Shown here: positions 5,409 through 53,123 of the stretch, piece after piece
Layout of the letters: each line of letters starts with the position of its first letter
Numbering within the stretch: the first letter of the stretch is position 1
DNA from: Mucilaginibacter arboris
Lineage (GTDB): Bacteria; Bacteroidota; Bacteroidia; Sphingobacteriales; Sphingobacteriaceae
DNA length: 64,000 bases
Assembly (NCBI RefSeq): GCF_009754915.1
Contig: NZ_WPIK01000008.1
Coordinates: forward strand, 62,001 to 126,000
Direction of reading: 5' to 3'
Program-made: the position numbers and the translations under genes
The notes under the pieces: generated by a model
The model's database searches: none
The model's input: only the letters and a program-made list of their open reading frames with translations
What the model was told of the DNA's origin: nothing

Positions 5409-6392
5409 ATGGAACCATTTAAATTAGTTCGGGCACAAAATAATGCTGCTGCTATTGCTGCGGCTACCTCGAAAGAAACAAAATTTATTGCCGGCGGTAC
5501 CAACATAATCGATTTGATGAAGTTGTATATCGAAACGCCGAAGCAACTTGTTGACATCACTTCTTTAAATTTAAAGCAAGTTGAAACCCAGCAAGACGGA
5601 AGTGTAAAAATAGGCGCATTGGTAAAAAACAGTGATCTGGCTTATCATCCAATCATCACTAAAAACTATCCGTTTTTATCGGAAGCGTTGCTTTCCGGCG
5701 CATCTGCACAGTTACGTAATATGGCTTCTGTTGGCGGCAACTTATTACAACGCCCTCGCTGTTATTACTTTTACGATACAGCATTTCCCTGCAACAAAAG
5801 AGAACCAGGTTCGGGCTGTTCTGCCTTAACCGGTTTTAACCGTAACCACGCTGTTTTAGGTACTACCGAAAATTGTATAGCTACACATCCTTCTGATATG
5901 TGTGTGCCGATGGCTGCTTTAGGCGCAACCATCCAGGTGGAAGGGGCAAAAGGAACGCGGAACATTCCTTTTGATGAGTTTTACATCATCCCCGAAAAAA
6001 TCCCTCAGTACGAAACCATTTTAAAACCAGGCGAACTGATCACAGCAGTCATTTTACCGCATTTGCCTTTTGCTGCAAAATCTCATTATTTGAAAGTCCG
6101 CGACCGTGCTTCTTATGAATTTGCCTTAACATCTGCTGCAGTTGCGTTAGACATCTCCAACGGAAAAATTAATGCTTCGCGGATTGCTTTAGGTGGTGTA
6201 GCAACAAAACCATGGCGATCTGCAGCGGCAGAAAAAGTATTAAACGGCGCAGCAGCAAATGCACAAACCTATCGGGCAGCAGCAGAAGCAGCTATGGCAG
6301 GCGCAAAACCACATAAATATAACGCATTTAAAATTGAGCTGGCAAAACGTACGATAGTTCGTGCTTTGGAAGCAGTAGGAGGAATGGTATGA
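5409..6392 (+). CDS. paoB: Aldehyde oxidoreductase FAD subunit with extra 4Fe-4S site (PaoB-like)
   Basis: FAD-binding subunit (327 residues) of the three-part molybdenum hydroxylase. The FAD-binding domain includes AGGTNIIDLMK (near residue 29) and SVGGNLLQRPRC (108-118). Between the two FAD lobes lies a cysteine-bearing insertion with Cys118, Cys128 (PCNKR), Cys137 (GSGC) and Cys156, the arrangement that carries an additional 4Fe-4S cluster in E. coli PaoB (YagS). The C-terminal CO-dehydrogenase flavoprotein domain covers about 215-320. Its stop overlaps the next start by four bases (ATGA), so translation is probably coupled. No signal peptide; it would be carried out by the Tat-tagged small subunit. 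Confidence 0.88.
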   Translation: MEPFKLVRAQNNAAAIAAATSKETKFIAGGTNIIDLMKLYIETPKQLVDITSLNLKQVETQQDGSVKIGALVKNSDLAYHPIITKNYPFLSEALLSGASAQLRNMASVGGNLLQRPRCYYFYDTAFPCNKREPGSGCSALTGFNRNHAVLGTTENCIATHPSDMCVPMAALGATIQVEGAKGTRNIPFDEFYIIPEKIPQYETILKPGELITAVILPHLPFAAKSHYLKVRDRASYEFALTSAAVALDISNGKINASRIALGGVATKPWRSAAAEKVLNGAAANAQTYRAAAEAAMAGAKPHKYNAFKIELAKRTIVRALEAVGGMV

Positions 6393-8710
6393 GCGATACA
6401 GTAGGAAAACCGATTGACCGTGTTGACGGACGACTGAAAGTAACCGGTGGTGCTAAATATTCAGCAGAATTTGATATCAAAAATATGCTTTATGGCGTTG
6501 CTGTTACCAGTAACGTAACCAAAGGCCGGATAAAAAATATCAATACCAGTATTGCAGAAAAATCACCGGGAGTAGTTGGGGTGATGACTTACAAAAATTC
6601 TATGCAGTTGCATTCGCCTTCAAGTTCTGATCCGGGCGGAGGAAAATTTGCAGAAAAAGACCTGATGCCATTGCAAAACGACCGTATATTTTATGACGGA
6701 CAAATTATTGCAGTGGTTATGGCAGAAACCTTTGAACAAGCCGAACATGCAGCTACCTTAGTAAAAGTAGATTACCAGACCGAAGATCCAATTTTTGATC
6801 TGGAAAAAAATATTGAAAAAGCTTATAAACCGGCATCAGCATCAACAGGATCAGAAACCCAGGTAAGCCGCGGTAATGCTGATGATGCTTTAAAAACGGC
6901 CTCTTTAAAAGTTGAGCAAACTTATACCACGCCGGTTTATCATCATAACGCAATGGAGCCACATGCAACAATAGCTTTATGGCAAGGCGAAACGGTAATG
7001 TTTTATGATTCTACTCAATCTGTTGCTGGTACAAAAAGTTTGATGTCTTCAATGCTTGGCGTGCCTAAAGAAAAAGTAAGGGTTATATCCTATTTTATTG
7101 GCGGCGGGTTTGGTTCTAAAGGATTTTCCTGGCCAAACACTGTATTAACAGCGATGGCCGCAAAACTGGTAAACCGTCCGGTTAAATTAGTGCTAAGCCG
7201 TCAGCAAATGTTTACTACGGCTGGCCGTCGTTCTCAAACCATTCAAAAGGTTTCTTTAGGTGCAGATCAGAGCGGAAAGCTTTCAGCTATTAAACACGAT
7301 AACACCGTAGAATCATCTTTTGTAGATGAATTTGTAGAAACAGCCGGTGTGGCTACTTCTATGATATACAGCAGCCCTAATGTAGATGTGAGCCATAAAT
7401 TAGTACGGTTAAATAAAGTAACGCCATGCCCGATGCGTGCGCCAGGCGAAGCACCCGGAATGTATGCACTGGAAGTAGCAATGGATGAACTGGCATATCA
7501 ATCTAAAATCGATCCTGTGCAGTTGCGTTTAGTTAATTATGCTGAAGAAGAGGAACAGAAACATAAAAAGTTCTCTTCAAAATATTTAAGGGATTGCTAT
7601 CAGAAAGGTGCAGATTTAATTGGCTGGAGCAAACGTAACCAGCAGCCAGCATCCATGAAAGAAGGTAAATATTTGGTAGGCTACGGAATGGCAACTGCAA
7701 CTTATCCCGCCAACCGAAGCGCTTCTTCTGCTAAAGCAGTATTATTTGCTGATGGACATGCAGAAATTATGTGTGCAACACAGGATATTGGTACAGGAAC
7801 TTATACCATAATGACGCAAACCGCAGCAGATGCTTTGGGTTTGCCGATAGAAAAAGTGATTGTTAAATTAGGCGACAGTGAATTTCCAAAAGGTGCAAAC
7901 TCTGGCGGTTCACAGGTAACTGCGAGTGTTGGGCCGGCAATTCGTGCTGCTTCTTTAGGTGCCATCAGCAAATTGGTAACAATGGCTGTTGCTGATCCAA
8001 AATCTCCTCTGCATGGACAAAAGGAAGTGGATGTTACTTCTCAAAATGGCCGTATTTTTCTCGCTGCCAAACCAGATCAGGGCGAAAGCTATACGCAAAT
8101 CCTATCCAGAAATAACTTGCAAAAGATAGAAGCACAAGCCATTACAAAAGTTTCCACCCGCCAGCAAACAGAAGCCAATCCGGCAGCAGGAGGAACTCCT
8201 GAAAAGGAGATTGAAGATGAAAGCAAAACAAACCAGGCAGTTCAGCTGGATGAAAAATTAGACCGTAAACCTTTCTCTTTCCATTCTTTTGGTGCCCATT
8301 TTGTAAAAGTTTTGGTTGATCCGGATCTGGGAACGGTGCGTGTTGATAAAGCAGTTGCGGTAATGGACATAGGTACCGTTATGAACGAAAAGACTGCTAA
8401 AAACCAAATTATGGGCGGAATGATTTTTGGAATAGGCATGGCGTTGATGGAAGAAACTAATTATGATCCTAACCGTGGCCGCCCGGTTACAAAGGACCTG
8501 GCCAATTATCTTGTTCCGGTTAATGCCGATATGCCCGATTTCCAGGTTGAGTTTATTAATAAAGCAGATAACATAATTTCTCCAATTGGTGCAAGAGGCA
8601 TTGGCGAAATTGGAATTACCGGAATTACTGCTGCCGTTAATAACGCTATTTACCATGCAACCGGAAAACGGATCCGCGAATTACCAGTTACACCAGATAA
8701 ACTTTTATAG
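6389..8710 (+). CDS. paoC: Aldehyde oxidoreductase molybdenum-binding subunit (PaoC-like)
   Basis: Large catalytic subunit (773 residues) that binds the molybdopterin cofactor and oxidises the substrate by hydroxylation. The N-terminal a/b hammerhead domain starts at residue 1 without a signal peptide. Cofactor motifs seen are GGGFGSKG (about 238-245), Arg350 in CPMRAPGEAPG, GTGTYT, and the C-terminal GARGIGEIG with the expected catalytic Glu740. Residues about 595-620 are an acidic low-complexity insertion (ANPAAGGTPEKEIEDESK). It overlaps the FAD gene by four bases. Four bases after the stop begins a hairpin of two inverted 12-mers, which may separate the structural genes from the maturation genes. 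Confidence 0.9.
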   Translation: MSDTVGKPIDRVDGRLKVTGGAKYSAEFDIKNMLYGVAVTSNVTKGRIKNINTSIAEKSPGVVGVMTYKNSMQLHSPSSSDPGGGKFAEKDLMPLQNDRIFYDGQIIAVVMAETFEQAEHAATLVKVDYQTEDPIFDLEKNIEKAYKPASASTGSETQVSRGNADDALKTASLKVEQTYTTPVYHHNAMEPHATIALWQGETVMFYDSTQSVAGTKSLMSSMLGVPKEKVRVISYFIGGGFGSKGFSWPNTVLTAMAAKLVNRPVKLVLSRQQMFTTAGRRSQTIQKVSLGADQSGKLSAIKHDNTVESSFVDEFVETAGVATSMIYSSPNVDVSHKLVRLNKVTPCPMRAPGEAPGMYALEVAMDELAYQSKIDPVQLRLVNYAEEEEQKHKKFSSKYLRDCYQKGADLIGWSKRNQQPASMKEGKYLVGYGMATATYPANRSASSAKAVLFADGHAEIMCATQDIGTGTYTIMTQTAADALGLPIEKVIVKLGDSEFPKGANSGGSQVTASVGPAIRAASLGAISKLVTMAVADPKSPLHGQKEVDVTSQNGRIFLAAKPDQGESYTQILSRNNLQKIEAQAITKVSTRQQTEANPAAGGTPEKEIEDESKTNQAVQLDEKLDRKPFSFHSFGAHFVKVLVDPDLGTVRVDKAVAVMDIGTVMNEKTAKNQIMGGMIFGIGMALMEETNYDPNRGRPVTKDLANYLVPVNADMPDFQVEFINKADNIISPIGARGIGEIGITGITAAVNNAIYHATGKRIRELPVTPDKLL

Positions 8711-12875: not shown

Positions 12876-15188
12876 TCAAGGTTTACTGACAATAACTTGT
12901 TGCATAGCCAAAATGTTCTGTTCGTGCCCATAAACAAAAACTTTAATTTGGTTATTGGATTTATTGCTGATTTGTACTTTACCCGCACTTACTTTAATAT
13001 CTAACAAGGCATTCCTGAAGTTGATGTGAAACGAAAAGCTTTGCCATTTTTCCGGTAAAAACGGATTGAAATTTAACTGACCGTTTTTTACACGCATGCC
13101 GCCAAAACCTTCTACAACAGCCATCCATGTTCCTGCCATAGAAGTAATGTGGCAACCATCGCAGGTATCATTATTATAATTGTCTAAATCAAGGCGTGCA
13201 GTACGCAAATAAAATTCATAAGCACGTGCTTCATCACCTAATTTTGCTGCTAAAATAGCATGCACGCATGGCGAAAGAGAAGATTCGTGAACGGTGCGGG
13301 CCTCATAAAAATCAAAATTTCTGCGGATGGTTTCCAAGTCATACTTGTCCTGAAAGAAGTAAATGCCTTGTAAAACATCAGCTTGTTTAATGTAGCAGGA
13401 GCGAAGGATGCGGTCCCAGCTCCATTTCTGGTTTATCGGGCGTTCGCCTTCCGGCAGGTCTTTCACCAGAATTTGTTCTTTATCCAGGTAATTGTCCTGC
13501 TGCATAAAAACCTGATGCTTTTCGTCGAAAGGAAAATACAACTGATCAGCAATTTTATTAAATAAAGCTGTTTCTTCTTTTTGGCTGAATTTGATTTTTG
13601 ATAAAATTTCTTCTAATCTCTCCGGATTTAGTTTCTTAACAATTTCTATGGCCTCTACAGCATATTTCAAACACCAGGCGGCAATCGTATTGGTGTACCA
13701 ATTATTGTTGATGTTGTTTTCGTATTCGTTCGGACCGGTTACGCCAAGCATAACATATTGCTGTCGCACTTCCGACCAGTTAACCCGCTGCGCCCAAAAC
13801 CGTGCAATGCCAATTAAAACTTCCAGTCCGTGAGAAGCAAGATAAGCTTCATCGCCAGTATAATTGATGTAGTTAAAAACAGCATAAGCAATGGCACCGT
13901 TACGATGGATTTCCTCAAAAGTAATTTCCCATTCGTTATGGCATTCCTCGCCGTTCATGGTAACCATCGGATATAATGCCGCACCATCTTTAAACCCTAA
14001 TTTTGCTGCATTTTCTATTGCTTTCTGTAATTGGTCGTAACGATAAACCAACAGGTTTCGGGCAACTTCCTGCCCGGCAGTAGCCAGATAAAAAGGAATA
14101 CAATAAGCTTCTGTATCCCAATAAGTTGAACCGCCGTACTTCTCGCCCGTAAAACCTTTTGGGCCGATGTTTAAACGGGCATCTTTACCGGTGTAGGTTT
14201 GTTCAAGCTGGAAAATATTAAAACGGATGGCTTGTTGCGCTGCTGCATCACCTTCAATCTGAATATCGTTCATTTGCCATTTTTCTGCCCAGGCTGCTGC
14301 CTGTTCTTTCAGCATTTGCTCAAAACCTTTTTGGCTGACGCGTTCTAAAGTTTCGGCGGTTAGTTTTTGTAATTCTTCTTTCGGGTGATTAAGAGAAGAT
14401 AAATTGGCCGCGTATTTATAAAGAGTTAAGGTTGATGCTTCTTTTACCGGTGTTTTTATTTGGATGCCGGTAAATTTTTCGCGCTCAATTTGTGTTGATT
14501 CAAATTCAATTGCCTGATTATCTAAGGAAAGTGAAAATTGCATTCCCGTACAAACTACAAATTCGGTTTTCTTGGTTTTCATTTCTACAAAGCTGCCATT
14601 TTTGTAAAAACCGTGTCCCGTTTCATCCCAGAATTTCTCGTCGTAATTAGAATCCTGATTTTTTACATCGCCATTAATAAAAGGCGTTAAACTGATTTCT
14701 CCTGAAAAATTTAATGGTGTTATGGCATATCGTACAGCTCCGCATTCATCATCTACCAGGCTGCAAAAACGTGTTGTCTTAACTTTAACTTCTTTTCCTG
14801 AAGCTGTTTTAGCCTGAAAACTTCGTTCTAAATATCCCTGCTGCATGTTCAGTTCCCGGCTAAATGCTGATACTTCACATTTGTCAAGGTCTAAAATTTC
14901 ATCTTCCAGTTTAATCTCTATTCCGGCCCATTCCGCTGCGTTTAAAACTTTGGCAAAATATTCCGGATAACCGTTTTTCCACCAGCCTACACGTGTTTTA
15001 TCTGGATAGTAAACGCCTGCAACATAGTTTCCCTGTAAAGTTTTTCCGGTATAAGTTTCTTCAAAATTAGCACGCTGGCCCATTCGTCCGTTTCCTAAGC
15101 TGAATATGCTTTCAGAAAGTTCGTGGTTATCGGCATTAAAACCTTCTTCAATAATTTTCCATTCGTGTATCTGTAAATATTTCTTCAT
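12876..15188 (-). CDS. GH65 disaccharide phosphorylase (maltose phosphorylase-like)
   Basis: Phosphorolyses an alpha-linked disaccharide to glucose and beta-glucose 1-phosphate. The 770 residues show the GH65 layout: N-terminal beta-sandwich, (alpha/alpha)6 barrel with YWDTEAYCIPFYL and the catalytic Glu488 in TGPNEYEN, matching Glu487 of the Lactobacillus brevis maltose phosphorylase, then VHESSLSPCVH and the C-terminal beta domain. The phosphate-binding region GMAGTW is conserved (as SMAGTWMAVV). The adjacent pgmB gene, seven bases upstream, consumes its beta-Glc1P. Maltose, trehalose and kojibiose phosphorylases share this fold, so substrate is uncertain; maltose is likeliest with the amylase next door. 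Its start codon lies within a 12-mer copy. Confidence 0.9.
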   Translation of the reverse strand: MKKYLQIHEWKIIEEGFNADNHELSESIFSLGNGRMGQRANFEETYTGKTLQGNYVAGVYYPDKTRVGWWKNGYPEYFAKVLNAAEWAGIEIKLEDEILDLDKCEVSAFSRELNMQQGYLERSFQAKTASGKEVKVKTTRFCSLVDDECGAVRYAITPLNFSGEISLTPFINGDVKNQDSNYDEKFWDETGHGFYKNGSFVEMKTKKTEFVVCTGMQFSLSLDNQAIEFESTQIEREKFTGIQIKTPVKEASTLTLYKYAANLSSLNHPKEELQKLTAETLERVSQKGFEQMLKEQAAAWAEKWQMNDIQIEGDAAAQQAIRFNIFQLEQTYTGKDARLNIGPKGFTGEKYGGSTYWDTEAYCIPFYLATAGQEVARNLLVYRYDQLQKAIENAAKLGFKDGAALYPMVTMNGEECHNEWEITFEEIHRNGAIAYAVFNYINYTGDEAYLASHGLEVLIGIARFWAQRVNWSEVRQQYVMLGVTGPNEYENNINNNWYTNTIAAWCLKYAVEAIEIVKKLNPERLEEILSKIKFSQKEETALFNKIADQLYFPFDEKHQVFMQQDNYLDKEQILVKDLPEGERPINQKWSWDRILRSCYIKQADVLQGIYFFQDKYDLETIRRNFDFYEARTVHESSLSPCVHAILAAKLGDEARAYEFYLRTARLDLDNYNNDTCDGCHITSMAGTWMAVVEGFGGMRVKNGQLNFNPFLPEKWQSFSFHINFRNALLDIKVSAGKVQISNKSNNQIKVFVYGHEQNILAMQQVIVSKP

Positions 15189-46760: not shown

Positions 46761-47939
46761 TTAAGGCGTATAATCTACCGGGACCAGTTCTGCCAGTTTA
46801 TCGTTTGCCCAATCGCCTTCATACAATGTACTTTCCGGCGAAACTACAACGCCATTCAAATCAAACAAAGCATATTTATTAAATAAAGTAACAATACTTA
46901 CTGCATAACTTCCCATATCTAATGGCCGGTAAACATTGTCTTTATTGTTGGCGTCGTATTTTTTGGTATAAACCACGTACAAATTATCCGGAAAAGTAAG
47001 TGCAAATAAACCCGGCCGATCGGTTTTTCTCAACACATCTTCTACTTTTAGCGGTTCTTTAAACAGGGTTTCGATATATCGCGGCTGCTGCGCCATTTGG
47101 TTCCAGTAATTAACAGAATCTCGGTTATTGCTTTTATTAAACTGATTGTATTTTTGCTTGAGCAACTCTTCCGGAGGCCGTTTCGGATTAGGTTTACGCA
47201 GCAAATGATACATCACGAAACCCTGTCCCTGCAAATCCTCATGTAAAACCGACCGTAAAAAGTGCATACTCGAACCGTAATAAGCTTCCTGCCTTTTCAG
47301 TTGCCAGTTTTGCAGTTGCGATTTATTTCCTTTCAGTTCCTCAAACAAAACCTGTCCACGATACCTGATTTCATTTTTAAGTTTATTGCTTTCAAAATGA
47401 TTAACCAGAAAACGTACACGGTAGCCTAAAGCCCTGTTTTCAACTACTAAAAATTCATCGGTTGAAGCTTCTAAAGTTTCGGTGTTTTTATGATAGATGA
47501 GATTAACAGCATGCGGATTAATGACCTTGCACAACTTGGAATTAGCCGAAGTACCGATAAAATCTTTTACAAATTGCGCATAATTTCTTTTCCAGTTGGC
47601 ATTGGTGGTGATAATCACTTCCTTCATTTGTATCGGGTGCGGGACCAGTTCGATCACCAATTGCTGTGGTTTATCGCCAACCAGCACACTTTGCGAATAA
47701 TTTTCGTAGCCGAGAATAGAAACCACCAGATTGTATTGTCCGGGTTTTACATTGTTTAGAGTGAAAGTTCCGTCTTCGGCAGTAACCGTTCCGAAGGTAG
47801 CATTGCTTAAAAACACACTTGCTTTTCCCAGCGGCGCTTTGGTATCAATGGCTGTTACTTTACCGGTAATGGTTCCGGCTTGTGCAAATAAAATTGTAGG
47901 TAACGAAATAATCAGCCAGAAACAAAAGAAGAAACGCAT
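46761..47939 (-). CDS. Carboxypeptidase-like regulatory domain protein, secreted
   Basis: 392 residues. Signal peptide MRFFFCFWLIISLPTILFAQ, then a CarboxypepD_reg-like (CNA-B type) beta-sandwich at about 22-105 (GTITGKVTAIDTKAPLGKASVFLSN... GQYNLVVSILGYENYSQSVLV), as found at the N-terminus of SusC-like receptors. The remaining 280 residues contain no TonB-dependent barrel, so it is a stand-alone protein. Periplasmic or outer-membrane-facing; function unknown. Confidence 0.78.
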   Translation of the reverse strand: MRFFFCFWLIISLPTILFAQAGTITGKVTAIDTKAPLGKASVFLSNATFGTVTAEDGTFTLNNVKPGQYNLVVSILGYENYSQSVLVGDKPQQLVIELVPHPIQMKEVIITTNANWKRNYAQFVKDFIGTSANSKLCKVINPHAVNLIYHKNTETLEASTDEFLVVENRALGYRVRFLVNHFESNKLKNEIRYRGQVLFEELKGNKSQLQNWQLKRQEAYYGSSMHFLRSVLHEDLQGQGFVMYHLLRKPNPKRPPEELLKQKYNQFNKSNNRDSVNYWNQMAQQPRYIETLFKEPLKVEDVLRKTDRPGLFALTFPDNLYVVYTKKYDANNKDNVYRPLDMGSYAVSIVTLFNKYALFDLNGVVVSPESTLYEGDWANDKLAELVPVDYTP

Positions 47940-48049: not shown

Positions 48050-48090
48050 AAATAAAAGTCCCTGCCTTTTTTCAAAGCAGGGACTTCCCT
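48050..48090 (-). terminator. Intrinsic terminator of candidate RNA A
   Basis: Ten perfect pairs (48056-48065 with 48077-48086) and a T-rich tail on the minus strand. Confidence 0.85.
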
Positions 48091-48160
48091 AAACAAAACA
48101 TTAACCTTTTTATTCCTAAAACCACTTACTTTTACGATGGCCTGGCTAACAGGGTTACGT
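48050..48160 (-). ncRNA. Candidate small RNA or conserved 3' element, copy A
   Basis: Read on the minus strand it begins GTAACCCTG, contains AAGTAAGTGGTTTTAGGAAT and GGTTAATGTTTTGTTTAGGG, and ends in a perfect terminator: AAGTCCCTGC pairs with GCAGGGACTT, followed by TTATTTG. A second copy sits at 50430-50537. It lies 30-140 bases after the glyoxalase-like gene stop, so it may be that gene's 3' end, but the repeated layout suggests a separate RNA. Confidence 0.4.
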
Positions 48161-48191
48161 TTATTTTTATTGATTTAGCAGAAAAAATATT

Positions 48192-48569
48192 TCAGGCTGC
48201 ATTTTCGTTTGCTTCAAATATTCCAAAAACGTTTTGGTCTAAATCTAAAAAGTAACCTTGCCAGCATCTTTTCGGAATGGCAAATTTCTCTAAAGCAACT
48301 TGTCCGCCGTTTTCAATAATTTTTTCTGCCGTTTGATCAAAGTTCTCCACCTGAATAGAACAAGTAAAAGCATTTGTACCAGATCCGGCCGGAGGTGTTT
48401 TGACCGGACGTTGTAAAAGCCCGCCGTTAATGCCGCCCGTTTCTATCCGATAATAAGGAATAGGTACATATTCTTCTTTGATAAAATTCCAACTAAAAAC
48501 ATTTTGGTAAAACTTAATTTCCCTTTCAATTTCTGAAGATTGGATTTCAAAATAACCAATTGTATTCAT
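48192..48569 (-). CDS. VOC superfamily (glyoxalase/bleomycin-resistance-like) protein
   Basis: 125 residues: IGYFEIQSSEIEREIKFYQNVFSWNF and the symmetrical second half AFTCSIQVENFDQTAEKIIENGGQV form the paired beta-alpha-beta-beta-beta modules. Metal ligands are not obvious (a His is missing at the first position), so enzymatic role is uncertain. An exact 12-mer lies five bases upstream of its start (48574). Confidence 0.85.
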   Translation of the reverse strand: MNTIGYFEIQSSEIEREIKFYQNVFSWNFIKEEYVPIPYYRIETGGINGGLLQRPVKTPPAGSGTNAFTCSIQVENFDQTAEKIIENGGQVALEKFAIPKRCWQGYFLDLDQNVFGIFEANENAA

Positions 48570-48636
48570 TATGATGCTTCTTTTATCAGGTTAAAATTGG
48601 ATATTAATTTAATGGTAAAGTTACAATTGTAAATTT

Positions 48637-49413
48637 TTATTCATAAACTTTTTGTTCGTCTGTAAAATACGTTTTCGATCCATTCAGATCCATCCGATTA
48701 ATTGTAAAATCGGTTGGTGTTTTAGGATTAGCAGTATGAACTTTCAGGAAACTTCTAATTTCACCGGAAATGGTATCAGGTGCAATTTTAGTGATCTGGT
48801 CAATGGCATCAGCTAAAACAGTTTTTGTTGAATGGATAATATCCTTAATTTTTTCGTCAGGGATTTTTGAAGCTTTGGAACGGGGTGCAACTTTTGCTGC
48901 CCAAAGTATTTCATCGGCATAAGCATTTCCTATGCCCCTTACAACTTCCTGGTCTTTTAATATTTTTTTAATGTTTGCACTTGCAGATTTTGCAAGAACA
49001 GGTTTTAAATAATCAAAGTTAAAATCTTTATCCAAAGCATCCGGCACTTTACTTTCAACCGGATTTAAAATTGGTTTTGCCTGTGCCATGTAATCCGTAA
49101 CTGCAAATCCTGATAAATCTTCAAACAAAATTTCAAATACCTGATGTTTTATATTTTGCTCTGTTAGCAAATGTATTTCGCCATTCAGCATTAAATGAAT
49201 GCCTAATTGTATATCATTACTAAAGTTTAGAAGCAATTCTTTTCCGTTTCTTTTAACGCTTTTTAAAGTTTTACCATTGATGTTTTTATAAAAGTCATCA
49301 ACAGGCGCATTTAATTTTTTCTCTCTGTAAATGGTTATTTTGTTAACTGTTTTTTTAGCAAACAACTTATTCAGGTTTTTGCTGATTACTTCGAGGTCTG
49401 GTAGTTCTGGCAT
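48637..49413 (-). CDS. Fpg/Nei family DNA glycosylase, without zinc finger
   Basis: 258 residues. The N-terminus PELPDLEVISKNL keeps the catalytic Pro and Glu; the helix-two-turn-helix includes EVVRGIGNAYADEILWAAKVAPRSKAS. The C-terminal four-cysteine zinc finger is absent; instead the protein ends FTINRMDLNGSKTYFTDEQKVYE, as in zincless-finger Nei enzymes such as NEIL1. Base-excision repair of oxidised bases is expected. The start ATG overlaps a degenerate 12-mer (49412). Confidence 0.85.
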   Translation of the reverse strand: MPELPDLEVISKNLNKLFAKKTVNKITIYREKKLNAPVDDFYKNINGKTLKSVKRNGKELLLNFSNDIQLGIHLMLNGEIHLLTEQNIKHQVFEILFEDLSGFAVTDYMAQAKPILNPVESKVPDALDKDFNFDYLKPVLAKSASANIKKILKDQEVVRGIGNAYADEILWAAKVAPRSKASKIPDEKIKDIIHSTKTVLADAIDQITKIAPDTISGEIRSFLKVHTANPKTPTDFTINRMDLNGSKTYFTDEQKVYE

Positions 49414-49509
49414 ACTTTTTTTATGGTTACAATTTTATAAGCTGGTGTAATAGTAAACATCCAAATAAAATTATTGTTAAAGTTTTCATTTTTCTGCCAC
49501 AGTTTTAGA

Positions 49510-49650
49510 TTATGAATGAAAAGAATGTTGGTTGCCATCCCAAATGCTTAAATCTTCATCCAATACTTTGACTGATGTTTTGAATTTAGAATCGTAGGAA
49601 TTGATATGGATAAAACCGGATATACTTCTTTTATGAGGTAAAATATGAGT
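49510..49650 (-). pseudogene. Possible decayed coding fragment
   Basis: The minus strand reads HINSYDSKFKTSVKVLDEDL and SIWDGNQHSFHS to a TAA at 49510-49512, which looks like a real protein C-terminus in composition, but the upstream frame is closed by a stop near 49672 and no start exists. A 12-mer variant is embedded (49622). Not matched to any family I know. The rest of the gap 49414-49711 is featureless. Confidence 0.25.
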
Positions 49651-49711
49651 TTCTTTAAAAAAAGTTTGAAATTATTCAACAATAAGCGGATTGCAAGTCC
49701 GACTAATAACA

Positions 49712-50137
49712 CTATTTCGACGGCTCTTTTTGATAAACGGCAAGAAAAAACATGGGCTTATCTTTGGTATCAAAAGATTCTGGATAACTGGTTCCCGCAA
49801 GGTTGTAACAAACCGTTAACTGTCCGTTTTCAAGTTTGTAAATTGCAGTAAAGTGCTTTCCTTTATTTACGCCGTCCCGTCCGTAAATATCCATCTTATT
49901 ATCGCTCAGCTTTACCACTCCTTTATCCACCGATTCGGCAGTCACGATATAAGTACTGTCGTTCAACACAAGCCGTTGTTTTTCAAATGCTTCTTTTGGT
50001 AGCTCATTTCCGCCGAATTGCTGTTTTACCGGAATCCAGGTTCCATTTAACGTGCTCTGTTTGGTTGTTGTGTTTTTTACGCTGTTATCATAACCAATAC
50101 CAAAAGTAAAAAATAGTAAAATTGATAGCAGTTTCAT
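49712..50137 (-). CDS. TIGR03067-like secreted lipocalin-type protein
   Basis: 141 residues: a short hydrophobic N-terminus (MKLLSILLFFTFGIGYD) acting as a signal peptide, then LNGTWIPVKQQFGGNELPKEAFEKQRLVLNDSTYIV and GVNKGKHFTAIYKLENGQLTVCYNL, the pattern of the TIGR03067 domain. Small beta-barrel; function not known. Monocistronic. Confidence 0.75.
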   Translation of the reverse strand: MKLLSILLFFTFGIGYDNSVKNTTTKQSTLNGTWIPVKQQFGGNELPKEAFEKQRLVLNDSTYIVTAESVDKGVVKLSDNKMDIYGRDGVNKGKHFTAIYKLENGQLTVCYNLAGTSYPESFDTKDKPMFFLAVYQKEPSK

Positions 50138-50429
50138 ATTCTAATGAGTTTTTTTGTGATTATTCGATCAGTTTACAATACTTCTTTTACCACATAAAAA
50201 TATAGTTTTTTGGTTAAAAACAGTTTGAAATTTTTGATTGAAAAGTGCGGTTATAATTTGGTTGAAGTATAAGATTAAAAATCCTTGAGTTAAAAATAGG
50301 ATTACAAATTTGGCCTGGTGAGAATCTCTTTATTTACTTGATTAAGTAACTCTAAATTTTTGTTTTGATTACATCCCAAGTGATTAAATAATTAACAAAA
50401 TTATGCCTTGAATTAATTTTTCCTCACAA

Positions 50430-50462
50430 CAAAAAAATCCCCACCTTTTCAGGCAGGGATTT
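50430..50462 (-). terminator. Intrinsic terminator of candidate RNA B / permease operon
   Basis: 11 pairs (50436-50446 with 50451-50461) with a GAAA loop, followed by T7 on the minus strand. Confidence 0.85.
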
Positions 50463-50537
50463 AACTAAAACAGAACATTAACCAATTAATTCTAAAACCA
50501 CTTACTTCTACGGTAAGAATTGATGCAGGGTTACAAG
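50430..50537 (-). ncRNA. Candidate small RNA or conserved 3' element, copy B
   Basis: Minus-strand order matches copy A: GTAACCCTGC, AGAAGTAAGTGGTTTTAGAA, GGTTAATGTTCTGTTTTAGT, then a hairpin terminator (AATCCCTGCCT with AGGTGGGGATT, two wobbles, loop GAAA) and a T run. A -7-like box TATTTTTG lies just upstream on the minus strand (about 50553). It follows the ABC permease stop. Confidence 0.4.
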
Positions 50538-50564: not shown

Positions 50565-53123
50565 TCAAACTTCAGATCGTAATACTTCCAGCGGTGGTTT
50601 GTTTAAAATGCCGCGGCTGTTAAAAAGGCCGATAAAAACAGTAATCAGCGCCACTACAAAAAACAGGATGAGAACCGGCAGCAGCGGCGGCGAAAAAGGT
50701 GTATCAAAAGAATATTTAGCCAAAGCCCAGCTTCCCGGAACGGAAATTAAAATTCCGGTTAAGGCAGCAATGGCACCGAGAAAAAAATATTCCAGTCCGG
50801 TAATAATCAGGATTTGCCTTTTGCTTGCGCCTAATGTTCGTAACAAAACGCTTTCCTGAATACGTTGGTATTTACTGATCAGTACAGAAGCAACCAGCAC
50901 AATTAAACCGGTAACAATACTAAAACCAGCCATAAAACGGATAACGAAACTGATTTTCCCTAAAATATCATCCAATAGTTTTAGCACTAAAGCCAGATCA
51001 ATAACAGAAATATTTGGAAATTGCCGCACAATTGCCTGCTGGTATTTCGCAGAAGCCGAAGCTGACGGAACATGCGTAGTAAACACAAAATATTGCGGTG
51101 CCTGTTCTAAAACGCCTTTTGGAAAAAGTACCAGGAAATTAGTTTGGATTCGGTTCCAATTCACTTTTCGGAAACTTGTAATTTTGGTTTCCATGTTTAC
51201 GCCTTGCACGTTAAACAACATTTTATCACCAATTTTTAAATGATTGTGATCGGCAAATTTTTCTTCAACAGAAATCGGTACAACTTCATTTGCACCTGCT
51301 TTGCCAATCCAATTTCCGGCTGTAATTTTCTCGGAAGAAACCAACGTATCACGATAAGTAACGCGGTACTCGCGACTAAAAACCTGACGGGGAATGTGTA
51401 AAGAAGTATCTTTTTTATAAACAGCACCGGTTTTTCCGTTTAACTCTTCCAAGCGGATCGTTACAATCGGCACCATTCCAAACACAGGCAAATGCTGCGA
51501 TTTGGTTAAATTAACTACTTGCTGCTGCTGGTTGGTTTGGATATCAAACAAAATCAAATTAGGCTGATTTCCTCCGGAAGAGAGATTAATCCGGCTCAAT
51601 AAAATCGACTGGATAAAAAATAAAGTGCTGATAAAAGCAGTACCCAAACCAATAGAAACCAACAAAATAATAGTTTGATTATTTGGACGGTACAAGTTTG
51701 CAAATCCTTGCCGGAACAAATAACTCCAGGAAAAAGGCAGGAATTTTTTGATCAGCCACATGATTAGTGTTGCTACTCCTGTCAAAACAAAAAACGCCAG
51801 CAACACAAAACCTGTAAATGCAACGGCTTGTTTGATGTTGTTTAGTTGTAAATAAGTGAACGCCAGAATAAAAGCCAGTATCAGTAAATAAACCAGCCAT
51901 TTCAGCGGATCGCGTTTAGCAGTTGCTTCTTCAAAAGACAAACGCAAAGTATTGAGCGGAGAAATATTTCGTATCGAAACCAAAGGCAGCAAAGCAAAAA
52001 GCAAGGAAATAACCACGCCTAACAAAATTCCGGTCCCGATAGAAGCCCAGGAAATATCAACCGTAATAGCAATCGGCAGAAAATCTTTAAAAGCTACAGG
52101 AAGCAATTGCTGAACAATGGTTCCTAAAGCAGCGCCAATAACAGAACCGATAAAACCAATAACAACAATCTGGATAAGATAGATTAAAAAAGCTTCTGAA
52201 GATTTTACGCCTAAACAACGCATAATGGCAATTGCCTGTAGCTTTTCGCGCACGTAAATGTGGATAGAACTTGCCACGCCGATGCAACCTAACAGCAAAG
52301 CAACAAAACCAACCAAAGCCAGAAAACGGGTAAGATCTTCAAAAGAACGCGAAGTCTGTTCTTTTTGGGAAGCAACGGTTTGCAGGTTTAAATCTTCTTT
52401 ATCCAGCCGAGGTTCTATTTTATTGGTCAGTTTTTCAATATTTTCCTGCCGGTCGTACTTAATGTAATAACTGTAACTAATGCGGCTGCCGCGTTGCATT
52501 AAACCGGTTTGCTGCAAATAAACAAGCGGCATGTAAACCACAGGCGCAACGGAAGCAGATAAACTGGTTTGTCCGGGCGCTTTATCTAAAATTCCGGCAA
52601 TGGCAAAAGTTACGTTGCCGATTTTTAAAGAATCGCCGGGATGCGCGTTAAATTGCAGCATCAGGTTGCGGTCGGCAAGCACTTGTTTATTTTTTCGGAA
52701 AGTTGCTGCTGCTGAAACCGGCGTGGTTTCTATCGAACCATAATAAGGAAAAGCACCTTCCAAAGCGCGGACTTCTACCAAACGTGTTCCCTGGTTTTTG
52801 GTGAACTGAACCATCGAAACAAAGCTGCGTTGGGTTGATTTGCGGTCGCCAAGCGAATCAATTAAAGTTTGTATCTGCGGAGAAACAGGTTTATTGCCTG
52901 AAATAACCATATCGGCACCAACCAATTCTGCTGCCTGCTGGTCAATATCTTGCCTCAGATTAAAACCAAAAGAATAAATGGCGACTAAGGAAGCAATTCC
53001 CAAAACAATAGAAGAAATAAAAAGAAACAGGCGTGAACGATTTTTGCGGCTGTCGCGCCAGGCCATTTGGAACAGCCAGCCAAAATTGATCGGCCTTTTA
53101 TAATTAACAGGTTCGTTATTCAT
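50565..53123 (-). CDS. ABC transporter permease, FtsX/MacB type (YbbP-like)
   Basis: 852 residues with about ten membrane segments in the YbbP arrangement: N-terminal helix (LFLFISSIVLGIASLVAIYSFG), a large periplasmic domain, two FtsX blocks (VGFVALLLGCIGVASSIHIYVREKLQAIAIMRCLG and MAGFSIVTGLIVLVASVLISKYQRIQESVLLRTLG) and further helices between them. Works with the ATPase gene 28 bases upstream. With the esterase gene this is the E. coli tesA-ybbA-ybbP neighbourhood. Probably moves or extracts lipids; substrate unproven. Confidence 0.88.
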   Translation of the reverse strand: MNNEPVNYKRPINFGWLFQMAWRDSRKNRSRLFLFISSIVLGIASLVAIYSFGFNLRQDIDQQAAELVGADMVISGNKPVSPQIQTLIDSLGDRKSTQRSFVSMVQFTKNQGTRLVEVRALEGAFPYYGSIETTPVSAAATFRKNKQVLADRNLMLQFNAHPGDSLKIGNVTFAIAGILDKAPGQTSLSASVAPVVYMPLVYLQQTGLMQRGSRISYSYYIKYDRQENIEKLTNKIEPRLDKEDLNLQTVASQKEQTSRSFEDLTRFLALVGFVALLLGCIGVASSIHIYVREKLQAIAIMRCLGVKSSEAFLIYLIQIVVIGFIGSVIGAALGTIVQQLLPVAFKDFLPIAITVDISWASIGTGILLGVVISLLFALLPLVSIRNISPLNTLRLSFEEATAKRDPLKWLVYLLILAFILAFTYLQLNNIKQAVAFTGFVLLAFFVLTGVATLIMWLIKKFLPFSWSYLFRQGFANLYRPNNQTIILLVSIGLGTAFISTLFFIQSILLSRINLSSGGNQPNLILFDIQTNQQQQVVNLTKSQHLPVFGMVPIVTIRLEELNGKTGAVYKKDTSLHIPRQVFSREYRVTYRDTLVSSEKITAGNWIGKAGANEVVPISVEEKFADHNHLKIGDKMLFNVQGVNMETKITSFRKVNWNRIQTNFLVLFPKGVLEQAPQYFVFTTHVPSASASAKYQQAIVRQFPNISVIDLALVLKLLDDILGKISFVIRFMAGFSIVTGLIVLVASVLISKYQRIQESVLLRTLGASKRQILIITGLEYFFLGAIAALTGILISVPGSWALAKYSFDTPFSPPLLPVLILFFVVALITVFIGLFNSRGILNKPPLEVLRSEV

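What the first reader, a model, noticed from the sequence alone, without database searches (positions are those of the whole stretch)
48050..50537. Two related RNA-like elements with terminators, 2.4 kb apart on the same strand
Both minus-strand elements share GTAACCCTG, AGTAAGTGGTTTTAG, GGTTAATGTT and a final hairpin with different stem sequence but the same shape: stems AAGTCCCTGC/GCAGGGACTT and AATCCCTGCCT/AGGTGGGGATT. Conservation of a non-coding block in two places suggests a small RNA family or a shared 3' UTR module. They follow unrelated genes (glyoxalase-like; ABC permease).
Basis: seen in the sequence. Interest (0 to 1): 0.6.

Follow-up and report, generated by a model that had tools for sequence, protein, structure and literature searches.

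The report
Twin stress-promoter small RNA genes
The two repeated blocks look like a pair of sister genes for a roughly 70-letter regulatory RNA, each with its own stress-type (ECF sigma) promoter and terminator, found so far in only one small genus of Sphingobacteriaceae and not in the RNA family catalogue.

Summary
Two minus-strand blocks (E1 50535-50429, E2 48159-48051) share a non-coding core and end in intrinsic terminators. Best reading: two sibling small-RNA genes with ECF-sigma-type promoters, not a shared 3' UTR.

The shared 5' word GTAACC is probably promoter, not RNA. In all seven copies from three species, AAC and CGTA sit at one fixed distance, with 16 unconserved bases between: a -35/-10 pair. 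The same -35 box and spacing precede an ECF sigma gene in 18 of 18 orthologues and its divergent neighbour in 14 of 18. TGTAACC-N16-CGTANAAG is enriched family-wide (43 hits versus 12 for the control), and 25 of 27 hits read outside the genus sit just upstream of an ORF.

The predicted RNA is about 47 nt of conserved, unpaired sequence plus a terminator with compensatory changes. The core is 78-95% identical between species, against 43-61% at fourfold sites of adjacent genes.

The family was found only in one three-species genus; no match in Rfam, plasmids or viral contigs. E1 always follows an FtsX/MacB-type permease gene; E2 always precedes a CarboxypepD_reg gene; the genes between turn over. 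Which sigma drives them (the conserved ECF gene uses NGTC, not CGTA) and what they target is unproven.

The parts
50529..50535 (-). E1 -35 box TGTAACC
   Evidence: AAC invariant in 7 of 7 copies; same box before an ECF sigma gene in 18 of 18 orthologues, one of them CGTAACC and one TGTAACT
50513..50528 (-). E1 unconserved 16-nt promoter spacer of fixed length
   Evidence: length 16 in all 7 copies, sequence variable
50509..50512 (-). E1 -10 box CGTA
   Evidence: invariant in 7 copies
50430..50503 (-). E1 predicted small RNA (start near 50502, inferred)
   Evidence: conserved core and terminator; start site inferred from distance to CGTA
50435..50462 (-). E1 intrinsic terminator hairpin, followed by T run
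48153..48159 (-). E2 -35 box CGTAACC
48137..48152 (-). E2 unconserved 16-nt promoter spacer of fixed length
48133..48136 (-). E2 -10 box CGTA
48051..48127 (-). E2 predicted small RNA (start near 48126, inferred)
   Evidence: start inferred
48057..48086 (-). E2 intrinsic terminator hairpin (approximate ends)
   Evidence: not picked up by the simple terminator scan
50565..53123 (-). FtsX/MacB-type ABC permease gene, constant upstream neighbour of E1
   Evidence: same in G002 and G027
46761..47939 (-). CarboxypepD_reg-domain gene, constant downstream neighbour of E2
   Evidence: same in G002 and G027
48192..50137 (-). Variable genes between the copies: 141-aa protein without a Pfam match, Fpg/Nei DNA glycosylase, glyoxalase-fold protein
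   Evidence: different genes in this place in G002 and G027

Best explanation
E1 and E2 are two paralogous genes for one genus-specific small regulatory RNA. Each has an ECF-sigma-type promoter (A-tract, [TC]GTAACC, 16 nt, CGTA), a transcript of about 70 nt starting about 7 nt after CGTA, a conserved unpaired 5' part of about 47 nt (AGYGGUUUUAG...GGUUAAUGUUCUGUUUUAG), and a Rho-independent terminator. Likely mechanism: a stress (probably of the envelope) releases an ECF sigma factor from its anti-sigma; the sigma switches on both copies; the unpaired 5' part base-pairs with target mRNAs. Shown by sequence: conservation, synteny, promoter-like pair at fixed spacing, terminator with compensatory changes. 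Inferred: transcription, start site, the sigma involved, base-pairing, targets and the stress.
For: Seven copies in three species. Core 78-95% identical between species versus 43-61% at fourfold sites of neighbouring genes; 1-nt length changes argue against a conserved reading frame. AAC-N17-CGT in 7/7 copies, reached in 0 of 20000 column shuffles. The same -35 and spacing, GTAAC[CT]-N16-[N]GTC, lies 37-63 nt upstream of an ECF sigma gene in 18 of 18 orthologues and before its divergently placed ~120-aa membrane-protein gene in 14 of 18. TGTAACC-N16-CGTANAAG in 399 family genomes: 43 hits versus 12 for the reversed control; 25 of 27 read outside the genus are intergenic with an ORF start 5-195 nt downstream. 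A review lists AAC at -35, CGT at -10, anti-sigma co-transcription and autoregulation as ECF hallmarks (PMC8103513). In the terminator 4 of 12 pairs show changes on both sides.
Against: No expression data. The conserved ECF gene and its neighbour use NGTC at -10 without exception, while all E copies have CGTA, and no ECF gene with a conserved CGTA promoter was found, so the cognate sigma is not identified. Within the three genomes the bare pattern TGTAACC-N16-CGTM is no more frequent than its control (5 vs 4, 4 vs 4, 5 vs 5). The family-wide hits come from related genomes and are not independent. One copy (G002_E3) has a weaker -35 (CGAAACC). Targets were not sought.
Confidence: 0.78

Rival explanations
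1. E is a 3' UTR module: a conserved mRNA tail (or a small RNA cut out of it) with the operon's terminator, copied behind two genes; no promoter of its own.
For: E1 lies 30-60 nt after the permease stop codon with no other terminator in between in all three species; E2 lies close behind a stop codon in G000 and G027.
Against: E2's upstream gene differs in each species (glyoxalase, transposase-family gene, short ORF) while E2 stays; in G002 copies lie 108 and 277 nt behind the preceding ORF. The fixed 16-nt unconserved spacer between AAC and CGTA is explained by a promoter and not by a UTR.
Confidence: 0.12
2. E is a regulatory leader (attenuator) of the CarboxypepD_reg gene, folded by a GTAACC/GGTTAAT stem and ending in a conditional terminator.
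For: E2 ends about 105 nt before that gene in all three species; RNAalifold proposes the stem.
Against: E1 is followed by other genes; the proposed stem shows no pair with changes on both sides, and one copy breaks it; no alternative antiterminator is evident; a conserved TTACTTTTAGCCATG just at the gene start suggests a separate promoter (inference).
Confidence: 0.05
3. E is a DNA site: a recombination or attachment site that flanks exchangeable genes.
For: Gene content between the copies is different in each species, and G002 shows a duplicated block with a PD-(D/E)XK transposase-family gene next to E.
Against: No integrase was recognised among the inserted genes read; the element has the build of a transcription unit; the G002 duplication extends well beyond E on both sides, as expected for ordinary homologous recombination.
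Confidence: 0.05

Closest known systems
ECF (sigmaE)-dependent small RNAs: MicA and RybB of enterobacteria, FoxI and FoxJ of Fusobacterium (PMC11005410)
   Same: Short terminator-ended RNAs under an ECF-type promoter, more than one per regulon, conserved in place within a genus.
   Different: No sequence relation found; cognate sigma, stress and targets unknown here; host is a Bacteroidota member; the two copies are close paralogues 2.4 kb apart.
FopS family of paralogous small RNAs in Bacteroides (PMC11697453)
   Different: 12-15 copies per genome in the species counted there versus 2-3 here; promoters described there as canonical sigmaABfr or PM2; no Rfam match of E1/E2 at gathering score.
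Autoregulated ECF sigma/anti-sigma promoters
   Same: AAC at -35 and GT at -10 (PMC8103513); identical -35 and spacing to the promoter of a family-wide ECF gene.
   Different: The -10 box here is CGTA, there NGTC.

Membership tests
[quoted passage not shown]
   7 of 7 copies; spacing identical to that before a conserved ECF sigma gene
ECF-sigma-dependent promoter | Same -10 specificity as a known ECF sigma of the genome | tested here: inconclusive
   The conserved ECF gene has NGTC in 18 of 18 orthologues, E has CGTA; no ECF gene with conserved CGTA found; the CGTA class does occur family-wide before other genes
ECF-sigma-dependent promoter | Transcription depends on an ECF sigma factor | not testable with these tools
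   No expression data or mutants
Bacterial small RNA with intrinsic terminator | Non-coding, conserved, ends in a Rho-independent terminator | tested here: met
Bacterial small RNA with intrinsic terminator | Discrete transcript that base-pairs with target mRNAs | not testable with these tools
   No RNA data; no genome-wide target scan was run
Any described Rfam family | Reaches the curated gathering score | tested here: not met
   none; only matches far below gathering scores
FopS paralogous small RNAs | Shared R1 seed sequence or model match | tested here: inconclusive
   No match to any family, but whether the FopS model is in this copy of Rfam was not checked
3' UTR-derived small RNA | No promoter of its own, tied to the upstream gene | tested here: not met
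   Promoter-like pair in every copy; E2's upstream gene differs between species

The most novel reading that the evidence does not exclude
E1/E2 are the non-coding arm of an ECF envelope-stress regulon in Bacteroidota, working like MicA/RybB or FoxI/FoxJ but arisen independently within a single genus, while the promoter class itself (TGTAACC-N16-CGTA or NGTC) is shared by the whole family.
Probability: 0.45. Interest if true: 0.55.

Novelty: new member of a known kind. Interest (0 to 1): 0.42.

Why it matters
If right, it adds a new small-RNA family with a readable promoter to a phylum where few small RNAs are characterised, and a testable link between ECF sigma control and RNA regulation. The promoter patterns TGTAACC-N16-CGTANAAG and TGTAACC-N16-NGTC, supported across Sphingobacteriaceae here, can be used at once to predict ECF regulons in these genomes.

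Tried and rejected
Rfam at gathering and permissive thresholds: nothing. tRNA/tmRNA: none. Covariance model R1 over 400 genomes of the order: strong hits only in the genus; 36 other genomes had weak hits (E 4e-4 to 0.05). Those aligned (the best twelve) match mainly through the terminator and were taken as chance; the best one, in G456, lies in another gene context. CarboxypepD_reg orthologues in other genera: the two best, read upstream, have a different gene order and no element, and four scanned loci lacked the core words. Plasmids and viral contigs: none. GTAACC/GGTTAAT as an RNA helix: no covariation. Sigma-70 promoter scan: at shuffle level. Sigma-factor genes of the three genomes scanned for a CGTA promoter conserved across species: none. 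Bare promoter pattern counted in the three genomes: no excess over control. Paper searches for this promoter sequence in Bacteroidetes/Bacteroides: no hits. The likeness to Bacillus sigmaW/sigmaX consensus sequences is from memory; a paper search for it found nothing.

Full report
Observation. Both blocks are real and lie where stated. On the minus strand E1 runs from TGTAACC (50535) to the T run at 50429, and E2 from CGTAACC (48159) to 48051. They share GTAACCCTG, AGTAAGTGGTTTTAG and GGTTAATGTT, and each ends in its own terminator-like hairpin. They are the only copies in the 4.16-Mb host genome.

Distribution. The element is found in the two other held members of the genus and nowhere else searched: three copies in G002 and two in G027. 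Viral contigs and plasmids gave none. A covariance model over 400 genomes of the order gave scores above 100 bits only in the genus; the next best was 42 bits and looks like chance.

Position. In all three species one copy lies 30-60 nt after the stop codon of an FtsX/MacB-type ABC permease gene and another about 105 nt before a CarboxypepD_reg gene. Copies after the permease share a stem ending in TGGGGATT, and copies before the CarboxypepD_reg gene share GCAGGGA, so the duplication seems older than the species split. Between them the genes differ in each species. In G002 a block holding a PD-(D/E)XK transposase-family gene, an E copy and the start of the CarboxypepD_reg gene is duplicated at 82-88% identity.

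Selection. Orthologous permease and CarboxypepD_reg genes are only 43-61% identical at fourfold sites between the species, near saturation. The 60-nt core of E is 78-95% identical between species (88-95% among the copies behind the permease; the low end is E2 of this genome against G002). One-base length differences inside the core argue against a conserved reading frame.

Reading the anatomy. The conserved 5' words are not continuous with the core. GTAACC (AAC invariant) and CGTA (invariant) are separated by exactly 16 unconserved bases in all seven copies, with an A-tract before the first. Column shuffling of the alignment never gave AAC-N17-CGT in seven of seven rows (0 of 20000). AAC at -35 and CGT at -10 are stated hallmarks of ECF promoters, along with anti-sigma co-transcription and autoregulation (PMC8103513).

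Independent support for the promoter reading. An ECF sigma gene (Sigma70_r2 and r4 in Pfam), followed by a 162-aa protein with a likely membrane segment and no Pfam match that I take for its anti-sigma (inference), carries GTAAC[CT]-N16-[N]GTC 37-63 nt before its start in 18 of 18 orthologues from Sphingobacteriaceae and three other families. The divergent neighbour, a ~120-aa membrane-like protein gene, has the same box in 14 of 18. The exact class seen in E, TGTAACC-N16-CGTANAAG, has 43 hits in 399 family genomes against 12 for the reversed control. Of 27 hits read outside the genus, 25 are intergenic with an ORF start 5-195 nt downstream; ten genomes of one neighbouring genus share it before a 50-aa peptide gene. 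Within the three genomes alone the bare pattern is not above its control, so the support comes from position and orthology, not from counts there.

The open joint. The conserved ECF gene and its neighbour have NGTC at -10 without exception; E has CGTA in every copy. Either the same sigma tolerates both, or a second ECF sigma with the same -35 preference drives E. No ECF gene with a conserved CGTA promoter was found.

The RNA. If transcription starts about 7 nt after CGTA (inference), the transcript is about 70 nt: roughly 47 nt without predicted conserved structure, then the terminator, in which four of twelve pairs show changes on both sides. This is the build of many base-pairing small RNAs, including FopS of Bacteroides (PMC11697453), and the promoter type is that of sigmaE-dependent small RNAs such as FoxJ (PMC11005410).

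Rivals. A 3' UTR module explains E1's place but not E2's constancy behind changing genes, nor the fixed spacer. A leader with a GTAACC/GGTTAAT stem lacks covariation and does not fit E1. A recombination site would fit the gene turnover between copies but not the promoter-and-terminator build; recombination between copies is more likely a by-product.

Limits. No expression data, no identified sigma, no target search. Start site, stress and targets are inferred. The finding is a new, genus-level family of a known kind of thing.

Noticed in passing
window 1-64000, 62 sites, e.g. 4238, 4308, 4453, 22381, 48574, 49622, 50178: The 12-mer TAAAARMAGYAT (longer consensus about ATTTTTANCCGRTAAAAGAAGCAT) occurs 62 times where shuffles give 0.7. 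Density is about 1 per kb in loci of all three genus members and 0.014 per kb in loci of other genera; 24 of 62 lie inside ORFs of 120 aa or more, on both strands, often in inverted pairs 50-110 bp apart. It looks like a genus-specific dispersed signal, perhaps of DNA-uptake type.
   Followed up: partly
L160-L177 and L139 (orthologues of L138:1195-1773): A family-wide ECF sigma gene with GTAAC[CT]-N16-[N]GTC before its start in 18 of 18 orthologues, and the same box before the divergent ~120-aa membrane-like protein gene in 14 of 18.
   Followed up: partly
L208, L209, L211, L214, L218, L219, L221, L222, L224, L227: A conserved 50-aa membrane-like peptide (MEHKLN..K.D..NVFVEGNAN..QMARVF) in ten genomes of one genus, always 40-100 nt behind TGTAACC-N16-CGTA[GC]AAG.
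   Followed up: no
L039 about 6290-7730 and 13240-14870: Duplicated block in G002 (PD-(D/E)XK transposase-family gene, E copy, start of the CarboxypepD_reg gene) on either side of AraC- and SDR-type genes; the first CarboxypepD_reg start is a remnant.
   Followed up: partly
G000:C7:29302 and G000:C78:152652 (L131, L134) and their relatives L129, L130, L132, L133: Two RpoD-like 286-aa sigma factors per genome in all three species; in G000 one has TGTAACC-N16-CGTA about 270 nt before its start, not seen in the relatives.
   Followed up: no
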